Of a stretch of 64,000 nucleotides of DNA, positions 56,091-61,897 are shown piece by piece (the stretch's first letter is position 1; the number at the start of each line of letters is the position of its first letter). Under the pieces are notes generated by a model that was given only the letters and a program-made list of their open reading frames with translations, was not told the origin of the DNA and did not search any database. The stretch comes from Candidatus Peregrinibacteria bacterium (lineage in GTDB: Bacteria; Patescibacteriota; Gracilibacteria; UBA1369; LOWO2-01-FULL-3): contig JABILX010000004.1 in the NCBI GenBank assembly GCA_018654255.1, forward strand, positions 202,083-266,082, given 5' to 3'. A program made the translations under genes and the position numbers.

Positions 56091-57674
56091 CTAACCTCTC
56101 TTCAAAACCAGAATAGTTTGATCATCTTTTTGCTCAAAACCACCTGTAAATTTGGCAACATCTGCCAAAATAGAGCTTTGTATCTCATCAGCTGAAGCTT
56201 TTCCACCTTTCAATTTAGAAGCAGCCAAAACAGAAGCCTTCAATCTTTCCATACCATAATGTTCTTTCTCGTTTTTCCAAGCTTCAAGAAGACCATCACT
56301 ATAAGTAACAAGAACATCTCCAACTTGCATTCCAGGATCAACTTCATTCACAGGACATTGGGCACCTTTTACCATACCTATAGCCATGCCATCTTTCTTG
56401 CCTTCAACTACATCGCCAGAAGAAGCTCGATAATGTAAAACCGGTTCGTGACCCGCGTTAACATAAGTCAATTTGTTGGCCACAGAATCCCATTTCAACA
56501 TACAAAGAGTCATAAACATCGTAGCCATCGTTTTCTCTTTCAGAACATCGTTCACGCTACAAACAATCTTTTTCAAGTCACCAGAACCCGAATAGCTATA
56601 GAAAAGTGAATTGGCAATCGCTCCAACTATACAAGCCGGAATACCATGCCCAGTTACATCTCCCAAATAAATCAAAAAACCATCTTTGGTCGGAATAAAA
56701 TCATACATATCTCCTCCAACCTCAGTTGCCGAAACCAATCCAGCCGCAACATCCAACCCTCCCAGCTTAGGCAACTTAGCAGGAATAATTTCTTTTTGAA
56801 CCTGTCTCGCAAGCTCAACTTCACGCCCAAGTCTTTCTTTATACACACGCGCCTCCAAAGATTTCTCCAAATCCTGTGCCATCTGATTAAAGGAAGCCCC
56901 AAGAGAACCAAGTTCATCTTTGGAATCAATAATCACCTGATATTGGAAACTTCCTTTTGAAATAGCAGCCGCACCTTCAGCCAATTTTCGAACCGGTCTA
57001 GTAACTCGAGTCGCCATATAAAGAGCAAGCAAAATCCCAAGAATCAAACCAAATCCAGCAGTCGCTAAAATCCGCGAAATCATCCTAGAGACACGAACCT
57101 CCATATTTTCATACGTCACCCCATAAACAACAGAGTACTTGTCACTAGCAGGTTGGACAAAATGGTCAAACTTGAATCCACTTTCAGGACTGTTGATCAA
57201 ATTTTCTTCATAATCCACATAGTCACCATTCTTCAAATAATATATATTCACACCACCTTTCGTTCCGTCAGACATCACTATGGATGGATTCTCAGATTTA
57301 ATCTGATTGATTTTTGCAAAAATAGTTTTTCGTCCAGTACCATCGTATTTCTTATCAGCATCAAAATCAGAGTCGTACAAAACATTCCCTTCATAATCAA
57401 CTACAGATACATATCTAACATCCAAATTCTGCTCAAACATCCGATGAATCTCCCTATTAAAATACACAAAACCCTCCTCCAACAAATACAAATCAGTCAG
57501 CTCAGCCACATCAGGTGCAGTCAACTCAGCAAATGCCTTAACTCCAACAAAAACATCATCCGCCAACTCAACCTTTTTCTCACTTATAAACAAGAATGAA
57601 ATCATCAAGAAAACAGATACCATCAAGGCTGTTATCGCCAGAATCATCTTAGTTTTTATTGAGTAGAGCTTCAT
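56091..57674 (-). CDS. Membrane sensor with HAMP and SpoIIE-type PP2C phosphatase domains
   Basis: 527 aa. Two membrane helices (about 9-30 and 200-222) flank an extracytoplasmic sensor region with a Cache-like look (VRYVSVVDYEGNVLYDSDFD). A HAMP domain (TRPVRKLAEGAAAISKGSF), a coiled linker, and a SpoIIE/RsbU-type phosphatase follow: SATEVGGDMYDFIP, YLGDVTGHGIPACIVGA, YVNAGHEPVLHY, TYSDGLLEA and KDDQTILVLKR. Such enzymes dephosphorylate anti-sigma antagonists, but no sigma/anti-sigma genes are near. The start overlaps the stop of the binding-protein gene by 4 nt. Confidence 0.92.
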   Translation of the reverse strand: MKLYSIKTKMILAITALMVSVFLMISFLFISEKKVELADDVFVGVKAFAELTAPDVAELTDLYLLEEGFVYFNREIHRMFEQNLDVRYVSVVDYEGNVLYDSDFDADKKYDGTGRKTIFAKINQIKSENPSIVMSDGTKGGVNIYYLKNGDYVDYEENLINSPESGFKFDHFVQPASDKYSVVYGVTYENMEVRVSRMISRILATAGFGLILGILLALYMATRVTRPVRKLAEGAAAISKGSFQYQVIIDSKDELGSLGASFNQMAQDLEKSLEARVYKERLGREVELARQVQKEIIPAKLPKLGGLDVAAGLVSATEVGGDMYDFIPTKDGFLIYLGDVTGHGIPACIVGAIANSLFYSYSGSGDLKKIVCSVNDVLKEKTMATMFMTLCMLKWDSVANKLTYVNAGHEPVLHYRASSGDVVEGKKDGMAIGMVKGAQCPVNEVDPGMQVGDVLVTYSDGLLEAWKNEKEHYGMERLKASVLAASKLKGGKASADEIQSSILADVAKFTGGFEQKDDQTILVLKRG

Positions 57675-59182
57675 AGTTCGTTTATATAAATAAATCCATC
57701 AATTCTAGGTTCAAAATCAACCCATTTCGCTGATGCAAAAAGAGTATCATATTCAAACAAAGGAATTCCGTAAACATCATCTTCAACCAGAACAGACATA
57801 GCTTCTTGCAACAGGTCCAATCTATTTCCAACATTCATTTCCAATTCCGCCTCTCCAATCAAAGAATCAACCTGCTCGTTAGAATAATTCGCAAAATTGA
57901 ACTGACCATATTCCTCACCAGATGTATGCGCCAAAGATTTCAAGAAATCACTCGAATCTCCAAGCTCACTTTTGAATCCAAGAAACGCAATATCAAAATC
58001 CGCCTTAGTCAAAGTTTCAACCAGATATTCGCTCTTCACATACTGGATATAAACACCAAGACCAACCTCATCAAAACTATCTGTCAAAAACTCACCCAAA
58101 ACATCAAGTCCCTCAGGCAAAATCACATTTACTTCATATCCATTCAATTCCTCAACTTCACCAACCAAAGAAGAATCATAAACAGGATCTTCTATATCAG
58201 GGTTGTATCCAAAAACACCACTTGAAACAAATTGTTTGACCGGATGCGCATATTCGCCAATATAACCTGTAAATTCATCAGTATCCAAAACAGATTTCAA
58301 AGCTCGTCTAGCCTCAACATCATCGAAAACTTCACTTTCAAAATTAAAAATCAAAAACTGAACTTCCAGACTCGGCACAGAAACCAAATCAAATTCAGCC
58401 AAATCAATCTGATCAGCCAAATCATACGGAACATAACTCAAAACATCGGCTCCACCATTGTTCAAAACATCAAATCTCTTATATTTATCAGTTTCCACTC
58501 TGATATTCGCAATTTTAAAAGACGAACCCCCTCCCCAATAATCATCAAACCTACTTAGCGAAATATTTTTATCACTAGAATCTTTCCCCCAAACAAAAGG
58601 TCCAGTCCCTACATATCCAGCCGTTTCATCATTCATTTTGTAAACATAGACAGTAGATAACCTCTGCAAAAGCAAAGGATCAGGCTTAATCGTCTCTATT
58701 TCGATTTTATATGGCTCAACCCTCCTAATTTCCTTAATAGTAGATAAAAACTCTGAAAGCTCGGATTTTTCATCAAATCTGGCCTTATCTATACTGTCTA
58801 TAACATCAAGCTCATCCATTTCAGAACCATCGTGAAATTTTACGTTCTTTCTAATATTGAATTCCCAAGTAGTGTCATTAATCAAACCCCAAGAAAGAGC
58901 CAACGCCGATTCCATATTCAAATCCATATCAGGCCTAATCAAAGATTCATAAACCTGATTCAATCTCTGTCTCGAAAACGGATTGAATTGAAGAGGATCA
59001 TATCCAAGACTAGGGTATGGTTCAAGCAACGTAATCTCTTCAATTTCAGATCTCTCATCAACAGGAGTAAAAACATCCACCACCTCATCAAATTGCTTTT
59101 CAAAAAACAAATACATACCCAGAAGCAGGAACACGACGATCCCAACCAACAGTCCAATTGTTTTCAAAATTTTATTTAACAT
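57671..59182 (-). CDS. Membrane-anchored family-5 solute-binding protein (OppA-like)
   Basis: 503 aa. One N-terminal helix (TIGLLVGIVVFLLLGMYLFF) anchors an SBP_bac_5 domain: NPFSRQRLNQVYESLIRPDMDLN, FNIRKNVKFHDGSEMDELDVIDSI, YVGTGPFVWG and DIAFLGFKSELGDSSDFL. No transport genes are adjacent; the next gene is a sensor phosphatase with which it overlaps by ATGA. A frame from a TTG at 59215 is open, but it lies upstream of the predicted start site, so I use ATG 59182. Confidence 0.85.
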   Translation of the reverse strand: MLNKILKTIGLLVGIVVFLLLGMYLFFEKQFDEVVDVFTPVDERSEIEEITLLEPYPSLGYDPLQFNPFSRQRLNQVYESLIRPDMDLNMESALALSWGLINDTTWEFNIRKNVKFHDGSEMDELDVIDSIDKARFDEKSELSEFLSTIKEIRRVEPYKIEIETIKPDPLLLQRLSTVYVYKMNDETAGYVGTGPFVWGKDSSDKNISLSRFDDYWGGGSSFKIANIRVETDKYKRFDVLNNGGADVLSYVPYDLADQIDLAEFDLVSVPSLEVQFLIFNFESEVFDDVEARRALKSVLDTDEFTGYIGEYAHPVKQFVSSGVFGYNPDIEDPVYDSSLVGEVEELNGYEVNVILPEGLDVLGEFLTDSFDEVGLGVYIQYVKSEYLVETLTKADFDIAFLGFKSELGDSSDFLKSLAHTSGEEYGQFNFANYSNEQVDSLIGEAELEMNVGNRLDLLQEAMSVLVEDDVYGIPLFEYDTLFASAKWVDFEPRIDGFIYINEL

Positions 59183-59217
59183 ATTTTTAGGTGCAATTTG
59201 CGCAATTTTATCCAAGT

Positions 59218-59246
59218 ATTATACCACAAAAAGAGGGCGACCACAA
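59218..59246 (-). promoter_or_regulatory. Promoter of the anchored binding protein/phosphatase operon
   Basis: TTGTGG (59241-59246), 17-nt spacer, perfect TATAAT (59218-59223). It overlaps the terminator of the upstream lipoprotein cassette. Confidence 0.7.
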
Positions 59247-59260
59247 CAGGCCGCTCTCTT
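59228..59260 (-). terminator. Intrinsic terminator of the lipoprotein cassette
   Basis: AAGAG-A-GCGGCC, loop TGTTGT, GGTCGC-C-CTCTT, then a short T-run. Eleven pairs with one mismatch and one wobble. Confidence 0.78.
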
Positions 59261-59266
59261 ATAAAT

Positions 59267-59301
59267 TGTTTGAAACTAAGGTGGATAGTGGTGCTCAAGA
59301 A
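59267..59301 (-). repeat. 3' arm of the long inverted repeat around the lipoprotein gene
   Basis: Complementary to 59753-59785 on the same (minus-strand) transcript. 18 contiguous pairs including one G·U and one U·G, a three-nt bulge, 11 more pairs, then three after a one-nt bulge. It lies in the predicted 3' untranslated region, before the terminator. Confidence 0.82.
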
Positions 59302-59362
59302 AACAAGAACGCAACCTACTATCCATCAATCAGACCTAAAGATCAGCCGAAACTGCCCTAGG

Positions 59363-59725
59363 TCAATAACAGTGAACTTCAATTGGTTCCGATGCCTCCA
59401 TCAGAACGCAGAGACCTTCTTCAAAGAAGTAATACTTAGTAGCGCCAACTAGTGGATTCGCCTGAAATTTAGTAGAATCCTTGCTGCATTTCTCCTGAGC
59501 AAGAATTCTAACCATATCCTGGCGAGCAAGGTCGGTAGCAAAATTCAACTGACTACTACGAAATCCGGGAAAGCATTGAGCATAGGACTTACCATCCGCA
59601 CTCCAACCTTCCTGAAACTTCTGGATACGCTCAGTGGGATTCTGAGCCTCGATCGTTGTTGTCGTCGCACATCCCAAACTTGCGACGATACAAACTAAGC
59701 ATACTGCGGCCATCAAATATTTCAT
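59363..59725 (-). CDS. Small lipoprotein in a self-contained cassette, 120 aa
   Basis: A lipoprotein signal (MAAVCLVCIVASLGC, Cys about residue 19) precedes about 100 residues with four cysteines (AQCFPGF, AQEKCSKD, EGLCVLM, EVHCY). No family recognised. It is the only gene in this window with a perfect AGGAGG (five nt from the ATG), and its G+C is visibly higher than its neighbours (near 46% by hand count over most of the gene). It has its own consensus promoter and terminator, and its leader and trailer are complementary over about 32 bp. The frame is open upstream to 60079 but the Shine-Dalgarno site fixes the start at 59725. It may be acquired DNA. Confidence 0.75.
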   Translation of the reverse strand: MKYLMAAVCLVCIVASLGCATTTTIEAQNPTERIQKFQEGWSADGKSYAQCFPGFRSSQLNFATDLARQDMVRILAQEKCSKDSTKFQANPLVGATKYYFFEEGLCVLMEASEPIEVHCY

Positions 59726-59730
59726 AATGG

Positions 59731-59736
59731 CCTCCT
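59731..59736 (-). promoter_or_regulatory. Perfect Shine-Dalgarno site of the small lipoprotein gene
   Basis: AGGAGG, five nt before the ATG at 59725. Other genes in this window lack such sites. Confidence 0.85.
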
Positions 59737-59752
59737 GAGAATGTGGCAACTC

Positions 59753-59785
59753 TTCATTGAGCACCACCCACCTTAACTTCAAACA
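59753..59785 (-). repeat. 5' arm of the long inverted repeat around the lipoprotein gene
   Basis: Lies in the leader, 16 nt upstream of the Shine-Dalgarno site, and pairs with 59267-59301. The two non-identical bases form G·U and U·G pairs on the minus-strand RNA but A/C mismatches on the other strand. Confidence 0.82.
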
Positions 59786-59823
59786 TACAAAATTTTCAAA
59801 GAACAATCGAAACAGGGCTTGGC

Positions 59824-59851
59824 ATAATAACACAACCATCATGAATGTCAA
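59824..59851 (-). promoter_or_regulatory. Promoter of the small lipoprotein cassette
   Basis: TTGACA (59846-59851), 16-nt spacer, TATTAT (59824-59829); leader of about 90 nt. Confidence 0.72.
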
Positions 59852-59868
59852 GCGTTCAAAAAAATAAA

Positions 59869-59897
59869 TTGACATTAAGCAGTTCAAAATATAGAAT
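59869..59897 (+). promoter_or_regulatory. Promoter of the 63-aa protein gene
   Basis: TTGACA (59869-59874), 17-nt spacer, TAGAAT (59892-59897); nine nt to the ATG at 59907, so nearly leaderless. Back to back with the lipoprotein promoter. Confidence 0.7.
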
Positions 59898-59906
59898 CCC
59901 GAACCA

Positions 59907-60098
59907 ATGACAAAAACAACCCCCAAACAACCAGATACTGATACGGACAACTTGTTCGATTTTGAAGAACACGAGTTTCCTGTGCCAACAGATAGAGAAA
60001 ACTCATCAACAAGACCAAACCCAGCAGTAATAACAAAAAGAAGAAGAGCCATAAGAAAGGGAGCAGCAAGAGCCTTCAAGAAAGGACTCAGGAACTAG
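59907..60098 (+). CDS. Small charged protein, 63 aa
   Basis: Not recognised. The N-terminal half is acidic and Thr/Pro-rich (TDTDNLFDFEEHEFPVP) and the C-terminal half strongly basic (TKRRRAIRKGAARAFKKGL), as in small nucleic-acid-binding or ribosome-associated proteins. I accept it as real because a near-consensus promoter lies at the right distance. It is divergent from the lipoprotein cassette and its stop overlaps lepA by 4 nt. Confidence 0.6.
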   Translation: MTKTTPKQPDTDTDNLFDFEEHEFPVPTDRENSSTRPNPAVITKRRRAIRKGAARAFKKGLRN

Positions 60099-61897
60099 TT
60101 GTCTTTCTTTAAAACAGCCAAGAAGGCCTCTTGAGGAATATTCACATTCCCAACCATTTTCATCCTCTTTTTACCAGCTTTCTGCTTCTTAAGAAGTTTA
60201 TTTTTACGAGTTACATCACCTCCATACAGTTTTGCAGTAACGTCCTTTCTATAAGCAGGAATAGTTTCCCTAGCAATAACCTTCCCTCCGATGGCAGCCT
60301 GGACAGCTATCTCAAAATTCGCACGAGGAATCAATTTTTTAAGCCTTTTAGTCATATCACGCCCAACATACGCAGCCTCACTCTTGTGAACAATAGATGA
60401 AAAAGCATCGACAACCTTTCCAGCAATCCACATATCCAATTTCACCAGGTTAGATTGACGATATTCAATAAATTCATAATTCATCGAACCATACCCACTA
60501 GTCACCGACTTCAATGCGTCGTAAAAATCGACAACAATAGAAGCAAGTGGCATTTCAAACTTCAAAATAACCCTATTCTGATCAAGATATTGAATATCTT
60601 TGTTTATACCTCGTTTCTTTTGGCACATCTCCATCACAGAACCCACATAATCTTTTGGCACCAAAACCTCCAATGAAACAAAAGGCTCCTTCGTCGCCTC
60701 AACAGATGCGGGATCCGGATAAGCAGCAGGCGAAGAAATCATCAACTCTTCCCCACCCTTTTGAATGATAATATAAGAAACCGACGGAGCAGTAACAACA
60801 AGGTCCAAATCATACTCTCTCTCAAGACGCTCCTGAACAATCTCCAAATGAAGCAAACCCAAAAAACCACATCTAAAACCAGACCCAAGAGCAGAACTAT
60901 GCTCCGGATCATAAGAAAGACTAGCATCATTTAGTCTCAATTTCTCCAAAGCATCACGCAAAAGATTGTAATCATCACCCTCACTACAAAAAACAGATGC
61001 AAAAACAAAAGGTTTCACAATGCTATAACCAGGAAGTGGTTTGGCCGACTCCATCATAATCATAGAAGAACCTTTTTGCCAGATAGTATCCCCCACTCTC
61101 GCATCAGCAACCTCTTTCAAACCAGTCACAACATATCCAATCTGACCTGTTTCTAATTTTGGACAAGGAACATATGTTGGCTTGAAATAGCCCACTTCAA
61201 GAGCTTCAATCTTGGTCCCATTATTTAACATATAAATTTCATCCCCCTTCTTAATTTCACCAGACACAACCCGAACATAAGCCACAACACCCTTATAAGT
61301 ATCATAAACAGAATCGAAAATAAGAGCTTTCACGTCCTTCTCCTCCCTTAATTTAGGAGGCGGAACTTTCTCTATAATCGTCTCCAAAAGCTTATCAACA
61401 TTCGTTCCTTCCTTCGCAGAAACACAAATTATCTCCGCCTTAGGAATACCAAAAGTATCCTCAATCTCTTGAGACCGTCTTTCCACCTCAGCATTCGGTA
61501 GATCAATTTTGTTCAAAACAGGAATGATTTCCAAATCATGATCCATCGCCATATAAATATTCGACAATGTTTGTGCCTCTATTCCCTGAGTTGCATCCAC
61601 AATCAAAACAGCTCCTTCAACAGCAGCCAAACTTCGACTAACTTCATACGAAAAATCCACGTGACCTGGAGTATCAATCAAATTCAAAGTATGTTCCTGA
61701 TATTGCATCCTAACAGGTTGCAATTTGATAGTAATCCCCCTTTCTTGTTCAAGATCCATCGTATCAAGAATCTGACCATGTTTCATGTCACGCTTATCCA
61801 GCGTTCCAGTCAGCTCAATCATTCGATCAGCAAGCGTCGACTTCCCATGATCGATGTGAGCTATAATGCAGAAATTTCTGATTTTATTTAAATCCAT
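60095..61897 (-). CDS. lepA: Elongation factor 4 (LepA)
   Basis: 600 aa, normal length. LepA is a ribosomal GTPase linked to back-translocation and 30S assembly. G motifs IIAHIDHGKSTLADR, the ERGITI switch, DTPGHVDF and NKIDLPNA are present, as are the EF-G-like domains and the LepA-specific C-terminal end (GNVNIPQEAFLAVLKKD). The start at MDLNKIRNFCIIAHIDHGKST is supported by a promoter whose TAAAAT is eight nt upstream. Confidence 0.98.
   Translation of the reverse strand: MDLNKIRNFCIIAHIDHGKSTLADRMIELTGTLDKRDMKHGQILDTMDLEQERGITIKLQPVRMQYQEHTLNLIDTPGHVDFSYEVSRSLAAVEGAVLIVDATQGIEAQTLSNIYMAMDHDLEIIPVLNKIDLPNAEVERRSQEIEDTFGIPKAEIICVSAKEGTNVDKLLETIIEKVPPPKLREEKDVKALIFDSVYDTYKGVVAYVRVVSGEIKKGDEIYMLNNGTKIEALEVGYFKPTYVPCPKLETGQIGYVVTGLKEVADARVGDTIWQKGSSMIMMESAKPLPGYSIVKPFVFASVFCSEGDDYNLLRDALEKLRLNDASLSYDPEHSSALGSGFRCGFLGLLHLEIVQERLEREYDLDLVVTAPSVSYIIIQKGGEELMISSPAAYPDPASVEATKEPFVSLEVLVPKDYVGSVMEMCQKKRGINKDIQYLDQNRVILKFEMPLASIVVDFYDALKSVTSGYGSMNYEFIEYRQSNLVKLDMWIAGKVVDAFSSIVHKSEAAYVGRDMTKRLKKLIPRANFEIAVQAAIGGKVIARETIPAYRKDVTAKLYGGDVTRKNKLLKKQKAGKKRMKMVGNVNIPQEAFLAVLKKDN

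What the first reader, a model, noticed from the sequence alone, without database searches (positions are those of the whole stretch)
59218..59851. Lipoprotein cassette whose mRNA leader and trailer are complementary over about 32 bp
Seen: the leader (59753-59785) and trailer (59267-59301) of one 120-aa lipoprotein transcript pair as 18 contiguous bp, a three-nt bulge, 11 bp, a one-nt bulge and 3 bp, and the arm is 16 nt from a perfect AGGAGG. The two positions where the arms differ give G·U and U·G pairs on the mRNA strand but A/C mismatches on the other, which favours pairing in RNA over a plain DNA inverted repeat. The trailer also has a local TGGATAGT/ACTATCCA hairpin sharing bases with the arm, so two states could compete. 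The cassette has its own consensus promoter, the only perfect Shine-Dalgarno site in the window, its own terminator and higher G+C. Inference: a 5'-3' closed mRNA that limits ribosome entry, similar in principle to the fold-back of hok-type mRNAs, or the terminal repeats of a small mobile cassette.
Basis: partly seen in the sequence, partly recalled or inferred. Interest (0 to 1): 0.8.

Follow-up and report, generated by a model that had tools for sequence, protein, structure and literature searches.

The report
Lipoprotein message with self-locking ends
In a small bacterial genome, the stretches before and after one predicted lipoprotein gene, for which no relatives were found, are complementary over about 29 base pairs, so the two ends of its messenger RNA are predicted to zip together, which would likely control how long the message lasts rather than whether ribosomes can start on it.

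Summary
The complementarity is real and not chance: leader arm 59757-59785 and trailer arm 59267-59298 form 18 bp (two of them wobbles), a 3-nt bulge and 11 bp. No score as high arose in 4219 mismatched leader/trailer pairs or in six shuffled 1.08-Mb genomes. Among arms 150-1800 nt apart it is the strongest pair outside one integron-like array in 1.08 of 1.24 Mb. Promoter-like and terminator-like sites lie outside the arms, so one transcript would hold both, in untranslated regions that translation would not melt. A separate start-codon hairpin (-10.3) already covers the RBS. I favour an end-locking or RNase III stem governing mRNA lifetime (inferred). A mobile-element reading finds little support: single copy, no flanking repeat, no attC detected. 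No homologue was found, so covariation could not be tested. On the way, integron-like cassettes of this bacterial order were found to carry gene-specific complementary arms that would extend attC; most mismatches there differ in type from the window's, but a link is not excluded.

The parts
59824..59851 (-). predicted sigma-70-type promoter TTGACA-16-TATTAT, upstream of and outside the leader arm
   Evidence: 11 of 12 consensus positions, TG before the second hexamer; consensus match only, start site not mapped
59757..59785 (-). leader arm (5' half of the end-closing stem), TGTTTGAAGTTAAGGTGG + GTGGTGCTCAA
59708..59736 (-). Shine-Dalgarno AGGAGG (59736-59731) and start-codon hairpin GGCCATTATGAAATATTTGATGGCC (59732-59708)
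   Evidence: -10.3 kcal/mol; RBS opening cost 12.3 against mean 5.6, sd 2.4 for 58 first-ATG ORFs of at least 100 aa in the window (some starts may be wrong), one of which is higher
59363..59725 (-). 120-aa predicted lipoprotein ORF (signal peptide and Cys at residue 19 read by eye), no homologue found
   Evidence: codon score best of six frames only narrowly (0.026 against 0.008) and about 1.2 sd below known ORFs
59267..59298 (-). trailer arm (3' half of the stem), with 3-nt bulge UAU
   Evidence: begins 64 nt after the stop codon
59282..59325 (-). competing local trailer hairpin TGGATAGT / ACTATCCA that uses part of the trailer arm
   Evidence: read; present in the trailer-only fold
59237..59254 (-). 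predicted intrinsic terminator stem followed by CCTCTTTTTG, just outside the trailer arm
   Evidence: consensus match
59907..60098 (+). 63-aa divergent ORF with its own consensus promoter-like site (59869-59897); neighbour, not part of the stem
   Evidence: the protein search listed only its own copy

Best explanation
The leader and trailer of this predicted lipoprotein gene are complementary over 29 bp plus a bulge, and the transcript is predicted to fold with its two ends locked together, likely to set how long the mRNA lasts rather than to block ribosomes. Shown: the complementarity, its rarity, and a promoter-like site outside one arm and a terminator-like site outside the other. Predicted: the fold, and that one transcript spans both arms. 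Inferred: the long helix sits near both RNA ends, so it would shield them from end-dependent RNases or be a substrate for RNase III, whose gene is in this genome, much as leader/trailer stalks of rRNA precursors are (that comparison is from general knowledge). Because both arms would be untranslated, translating ribosomes would not melt the stem. Translation itself is probably gated by the separate start-codon hairpin that overlaps the Shine-Dalgarno.
For: Pairing far beyond chance: 0 of 3000 shuffles and best of 5074 placements; leader/trailer score 20.0 against a maximum of 16.5 in 4219 mismatched pairs; none of six Markov-shuffled 1.08-Mb genomes reached 20. Fold closed by the stem, z -5.9. 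Both arms inside promoter-like and terminator-like sites. Both imperfect positions are wobble pairs on the mRNA strand, and the opposite strand pairs less well, -54.1 against -70.8. Mismatches in integron-type arms of this order lean the other way: 39 of bottom-strand wobble type against 3 of sense type, but mostly from one conserved column; beyond position 12 it is 6 against 2, with 13 of other types (26 of the 30 rows listed typed). RNase III gene present, 253.7 bits, cut-off 166.25. Closure does not raise the RBS opening cost.
Against: No homologue of the gene was found, so no covariation test was possible. Only two wobble positions carry the RNA-against-DNA argument, and the comparison sample beyond position 12 is small. 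No expression data; promoter-like and terminator-like sites are not clearly above the shuffle expectation for the region. The ORF's own protein was absent from the protein search, although its 63-aa neighbour was present, so public gene calling may have missed or mis-started it, and its codon score is only narrowly the best frame. The outer ends of the arms read GTT/AAC, as in integron cassettes, and the window scores 19 on that test, a level reached by about 0.1% of mismatched pairs, which leaves a DNA origin open.
Confidence: 0.45

Rival explanations
1. The arms are the ends of a DNA-level gene cassette, akin to the integron cassettes in the same genome, that landed between lepA and the solute-binding-protein gene and has lost its attC site; any RNA pairing is a by-product.
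For: Integron-type cassettes of this genome and order carry gene-specific complementary arms at both ends (39 of 232 array-side ORFs score at least 16; 0.23% of 888 mismatched pairs do), and the window scores 19 with the same GTT/AAC outer anchor. One array gene (L124 13928) has a GTTTGGG end that resembles the window's GTTTGAA. The gene is an orphan of higher G+C at a place where relatives have lepA next to the solute-binding gene or a 420-aa TPR gene there. In G045 a different orphan lipoprotein sits in the same gap with a 17-nt perfect inverted repeat around it.
Against: No attC-like hairpin within 58900-60200 (the finder recovers only part of the array sites and also sites in the whole 64 kb). 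The GAAAT/ACATC signature next to most cassette ends is absent. Promoter-like and terminator-like sites lie outside the arms, whereas several array cassettes show promoter-like sites inside or at the arms by eye. Wobble positions favour the mRNA strand, opposite to the integron arms. The G045 repeat alone is at chance level genome-wide.
Confidence: 0.25
2. The trailer folds back to block ribosome entry, as in icaR or hok mRNAs.
For: The arm ends 16-20 nt before AGGAGG; the SD hexamer is slightly costlier to open with the trailer than without it, 7.7 against 6.6 kcal/mol, and its first four bases are more paired.
Against: The trailer does not pair with the SD or start codon; the whole RBS is cheaper to open when closed, 10.9 against 13.1; a local hairpin already occludes it.
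Confidence: 0.1
3. The pair of arms is a neutral remnant of a recent inverted duplication with no function.
For: Arms differ by only two transitions and a 3-nt indel; no homologues show that the pairing is maintained.
Confidence: 0.15
4. The gene is an invertible DNA segment: recombination between the arms would flip it relative to the fixed promoter and terminator and switch it off.
For: Promoter-like and terminator-like sites are outside, the gene inside, an inverted repeat.
Against: Arms carry a 3-nt length difference and two mismatches. No recombinase was noticed among the ORFs listed for 52-64 kb, though they were not all scanned. Nothing shows the other orientation.
Confidence: 0.05

Closest known systems
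icaR mRNA 5'-3' UTR pairing, Staphylococcus aureus (PMC3868564; passages seen)
   Same: 3' UTR of one mRNA pairs with its own 5' UTR; the duplex is a substrate for RNase III there
   Different: There a short UCCCCUG motif covers the Shine-Dalgarno; here about 29 bp pair upstream of the SD and the model predicts no RBS block
hok mRNA fold-back (R1 plasmid; as described in the PMC3868564 passages)
   Same: 3' end folds back on the 5' part of the same mRNA
   Different: In hok the 3' end folds onto the translation start region and silences translation; here the stem stays clear of it, the product is 120 aa, and an antisense RNA was not looked for beyond promoter-like sites
rRNA precursor processing stalks cut by RNase III (general knowledge)
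   Same: Leader and trailer form one long closing stem just inside the transcript ends
   Different: Encloses a predicted protein-coding gene; no Rfam match at E up to 1 in 59100-60000; processing untested
Integron gene cassettes with attC (PMC2727003 passages; array in this genome)
   Same: Orphan gene with gene-specific complementary ends beginning GTT and ending AAC
   Different: No attC detected, not in the array, promoter-like site outside the arms, opposite wobble type

Membership tests
icaR/hok-type fold-back mRNA | long-range complementarity of 3' UTR with 5' UTR of the same mRNA | tested here: met
   (complementarity and predicted fold; pairing in the cell not shown)
icaR/hok-type fold-back mRNA | pairing covers the SD or start region and hinders ribosome loading | tested here: not met
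   RBS opening 10.9 closed, 13.1 without trailer; arm ends 16-20 nt upstream of the SD (a model result)
icaR/hok-type fold-back mRNA | expression changes when pairing is broken and returns when it is restored | not testable with these tools
   needs reporter mutants
RNase III processing stalk | long leader-trailer helix enclosing the product | tested here: met
   18 bp, 3-nt bulge, then 16 further pairs with a 1-nt bulge, in the predicted fold
RNase III processing stalk | RNase III encoded by the genome | tested here: met
RNase III processing stalk | cleavage within the stem | not testable with these tools
   needs RNA end mapping
Integron gene cassette | attC hairpin at the 3' end with AAC...GTT core | tested here: not met
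   0 in 58900-60200; the same finder gave 3 calls in L078 3700-9300 and 5 in L123 3700-9500, not all of them attC, so its sensitivity is limited
Integron gene cassette | lies in an array beside an integron-type integrase | tested here: not met
   the only integrase match at E 1e-40 is G000:C3:62893-63771, the window is on C1
Integron gene cassette | order-specific end signature GTTRNRYGAAAT / ACATCRGYYAAC | tested here: not met
   A/G mismatch at position 11 in 24 of 26 typed cassettes, absent in the window; 4 of the 30 listed rows with atypical ends were left out of that count
Transposable element with terminal inverted repeats | further copies of the ends | tested here: not met
Transposable element with terminal inverted repeats | target-site duplication flanking the ends | tested here: not met
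   best shared flank word 4 nt in 20 + 20 bases
Bacterial lipoprotein | signal peptide with lipobox cysteine | tested here: inconclusive
   MKYLMAAVCLVCIVASLGC read by eye; no predictor run; no family match

The most novel reading that the evidence does not exclude
Recently acquired orphan genes in this bacterial order travel as units whose two ends carry gene-specific complementary arms. In integron arrays the arms extend the attC hairpin of the excised circle. In solitary units such as this lipoprotein, and perhaps the G045 lipoprotein in the same lepA gap, the same kind of arms has been turned into an end-locking stem of the mRNA.
Probability: 0.15. Interest if true: 0.8.

Novelty: new variant of a known kind. 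Interest (0 to 1): 0.5.

Why it matters
If the stem works as inferred, it would be a bacterial protein-coding mRNA closed end to end by a long helix kept clear of the ribosome site, separating control of mRNA lifetime from control of translation. It would give a concrete, testable case. The complementary arms found on integron-type cassettes of the same order bear on a separate question, how cassette ends are recognised.

Tried and rejected
rRNA-type antitermination: the leader holds TCTTTGAAAATTTTG and the G045 leader TCTTTGAAAACTTG, which recalled boxA (from memory). The pattern's 3 other matches in the own genome looked coding by eye, and none lay at the 16S gene, so it was dropped.

A third solitary case, G000:C3:169511-170113 (arms scoring 17.5, 71-aa ORF, fold z -6.8), looked similar, but scores of 17.5 or more arise by chance about once per shuffled genome (1,0,2,1,1,3 in six). 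It is reported only as noticed. The G045 arms (17 exact) are likewise at chance level genome-wide (17 or more: 3,2,3,2,1,4).

Rfam found nothing credible (one search gave five weak matches, best E 0.098, in families of other organisms). The structure prediction of the lipoprotein from a single sequence was poor (mean pLDDT 45) and was not searched. PHROG 6187 at E 0.045 and two chitinase chains at E 0.06 and 0.098 were taken as noise. Forbidding arm-arm pairs gave a gain of 42.7 kcal/mol (40.6 for the other strand), but the constraint left the arms unpaired, so the 18 kcal/mol is quoted instead; note that the two strands hardly differ. The exact-repeat scan of 43 lepA-SBP loci would not have seen the window's own arms (longest exact run 11), and several loci lacked lepA, so it is weak evidence. 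The first attC finder was too strict and was relaxed. The 420-aa TPR gene of relatives was not found in the 1.08 Mb of G000 held.

Full report
What is there. On the minus strand of 59218-59851 lies a predicted transcript: promoter-like site 59851-59824, leader, AGGAGG, a 120-aa ORF (59725-59363), trailer and a terminator-like stem at 59254-59237. The leader arm (59785-59757) and the trailer arm (59298-59267) are complementary over 18 bp, a 3-nt bulge and 11 bp; the 18 bp include one G-U and one U-G wobble. The minimum-free-energy fold of the transcript is closed by this stem. The promoter-like and terminator-like sites are consensus matches; the scan found 4 and 2 in that 1 kb against 2.0 and 0.9 in shuffles.

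Chance. Duplex energy of the leader and trailer is -70.8 kcal/mol; 3000 dinucleotide shuffles gave a mean of -45.7 (sd 5.1) and none as low; of 5074 equally spaced placements in the window it is the lowest, the next being -65.4. In a DNA comparison of each ORF's leader with its own trailer (704 ORFs in 788 kb of G000 and G045) this gene scored 20.0, against a maximum of 16.5 in 4219 mismatched pairs. Only three genes scored higher, and all three lie in one integron-like array. An ORF-independent scan (arms 150-1800 nt apart, low complexity left out) of 1.526 Mb, of 280 kb more of G000 and the 11 loci, and a Markov-shuffle control on 1,081,625 of the 1,237,234 bases of G000 gave the same picture: no shuffled genome of six reached 20. 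In one search one pair in G004 scored 19.5, but one of its arms is itself a palindrome.

The gene. No relative was found: 0 of 59 other related genomes at E 0.001; at E up to 1, one match at E 0.08 with an internal stop in 29 family genomes; no candidate among 5.8 billion proteins at that search's sensitivity; no Pfam or NCBIfam family; one PHROG at E 0.045; none in viral contigs. The ORF's own protein did not appear, although its 63-aa divergent neighbour did. It may have been missed by gene callers, or called with the longer 238-aa frame, which would fall outside that search's length limits; this was not settled. Its codon score is the best of six frames (0.026 against 0.008 for the next) but about 1.2 sd below known ORFs. 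The signal peptide and cysteine are read by eye.

Mechanism. If the fold-back limited ribosome entry, closing should raise the cost of opening the RBS. The model says otherwise: 10.9 kcal/mol in the full-length RNA, 13.1 without the trailer, 12.5 without the leader arm; for the SD hexamer alone 7.7, 6.6 and 8.4. Pairing of the first four SD bases is higher with the trailer than without it, but for three of the four it is also high in the first 400 nt alone. The RBS is occluded by a local 8-bp hairpin around the start codon (-10.3 kcal/mol), and its opening cost of 12.3 is exceeded by only one of 58 first-ATG window ORFs. Closing is favoured by about 18 kcal/mol over folding the leader plus ORF and the trailer apart. 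Since both arms would be untranslated, elongating ribosomes would leave the stem intact. I therefore infer a role in mRNA stability or processing. An RNase III gene is present, and icaR shows that a 5'-3' UTR duplex can be an RNase III substrate (PMC3868564, passages seen).

DNA-level readings. Arms elsewhere: only this pair in the own genome, 0 in viral contigs, 11 single matches in genome contigs, about what chance gives by my estimate, none part of an inverted pair in the fetched stretches. No flanking direct repeat beyond 4 nt. The gene nevertheless looks inserted. A 420-aa gene with TPR matches lies upstream of the solute-binding gene in 17 of the 18 other family loci given, with lepA on its far side in the 5 where the stretch reaches that far; it was not found in the held 1.08 Mb of G000. 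In loci of other families such as L024, L030, L032 and L033 lepA and the solute-binding gene are adjacent. G045, of another family, carries a different orphan lipoprotein there, itself flanked by a 17-nt perfect inverted repeat, although 17 is a chance-level score genome-wide.

The integron comparison. G000:C3 holds a tyrosine recombinase (integron-integrase model TIGR02249 at 214.6 bits, below its cut-off of 265) beside an array of genes with palindromic sites seen by eye. Its relatives were found in 45 of 89 genomes of the order, own included, at E 1e-40. In 19 such loci (17 gave array-side ORFs), 39 of 232 array-side ORFs, in 11 loci, have a stretch beginning GTT before the gene that is complementary to a stretch ending AAC after it at a score of at least 16; 2 of 888 mismatched pairs do, one of them at 31. 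In the cases printed (16 array genes) most of these ends border an attC-like palindrome by eye. In the excised circle such arms would extend the attC hairpin (inference). Mismatches in 26 of the 30 listed cases (4 with atypical ends left out, which favours the signature) are 39 of bottom-strand wobble type, 3 of sense type and 33 others, with a conserved mismatch at positions 10-11; beyond position 12 the wobble counts are 6 and 2. Published attC sites are described as similar at two heptanucleotide boxes at their boundaries (PMC2727003, passages). The window's arms share the GTT/AAC outer ends and score 19 on the same test, but no attC was detected, the signature is absent, promoter-like and terminator-like sites are outside, and the two mismatches are sense-type wobbles. 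I therefore do not file the gene as a cassette, but a common origin is not excluded.

Verdict. The host was not identified; small genome size and gene content suggest a Patescibacteria-type bacterium, which is an inference.

Noticed in passing
G000:C3:62893-67720 (L078 2893-7720) and 18 related loci, e.g. L122, L123, L126, L128: Integron-like arrays in this order: cassette 5' starts (typically GTTRNRYGAAAT + 10-60 nt) are complementary to a stretch after the gene (...ACATCRGYYAAC) that borders an attC-like site, so the excised circle would carry an extended attC stem; 39 of 232 array-side ORFs in 11 of 17 loci, 2 of 888 mismatched pairs. Paper searches pairing integron terms with Patescibacteria, Candidate Phyla Radiation, CPR, Gracilibacteria or Peregrinibacteria listed no paper on it (listings only, 12 of 19 and 8 of 494 shown).
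   Followed up: partly
L015:480-1500 (G045:C7): Different orphan Cys-rich lipoprotein plus a 48-aa ORF in the same lepA/solute-binding gap, inside a 17-nt perfect inverted repeat; fold z -4.95 on 20 shuffles. Repeat length alone is at chance level genome-wide.
   Followed up: partly
L083:9511-10113 minus (G000:C3:169511-170113): About 600-nt intergenic unit closed by a 17-bp predicted stem, with a long leader hairpin covering an AGGAGG site and a 71-aa ORF; fold z -6.8 on 20 shuffles; no credible Rfam and no PHROG match. Its repeat score is at chance level.
   Followed up: partly
window 59907-60098 (+): 63-aa ORF, divergent from the lipoprotein, with a consensus promoter-like site at 59869-59897 whose -35 faces the lipoprotein's -35, and a 3' end overlapping that of lepA; the protein search listed only its own copy.
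   Followed up: partly
window 57671-60100, relatives L006-L034 and L133-L152: A 420-aa TPR-type gene precedes the solute-binding gene in 17 of 18 other family loci given; it is missing here and was not found in the held 1.08 Mb of G000.
   Followed up: partly
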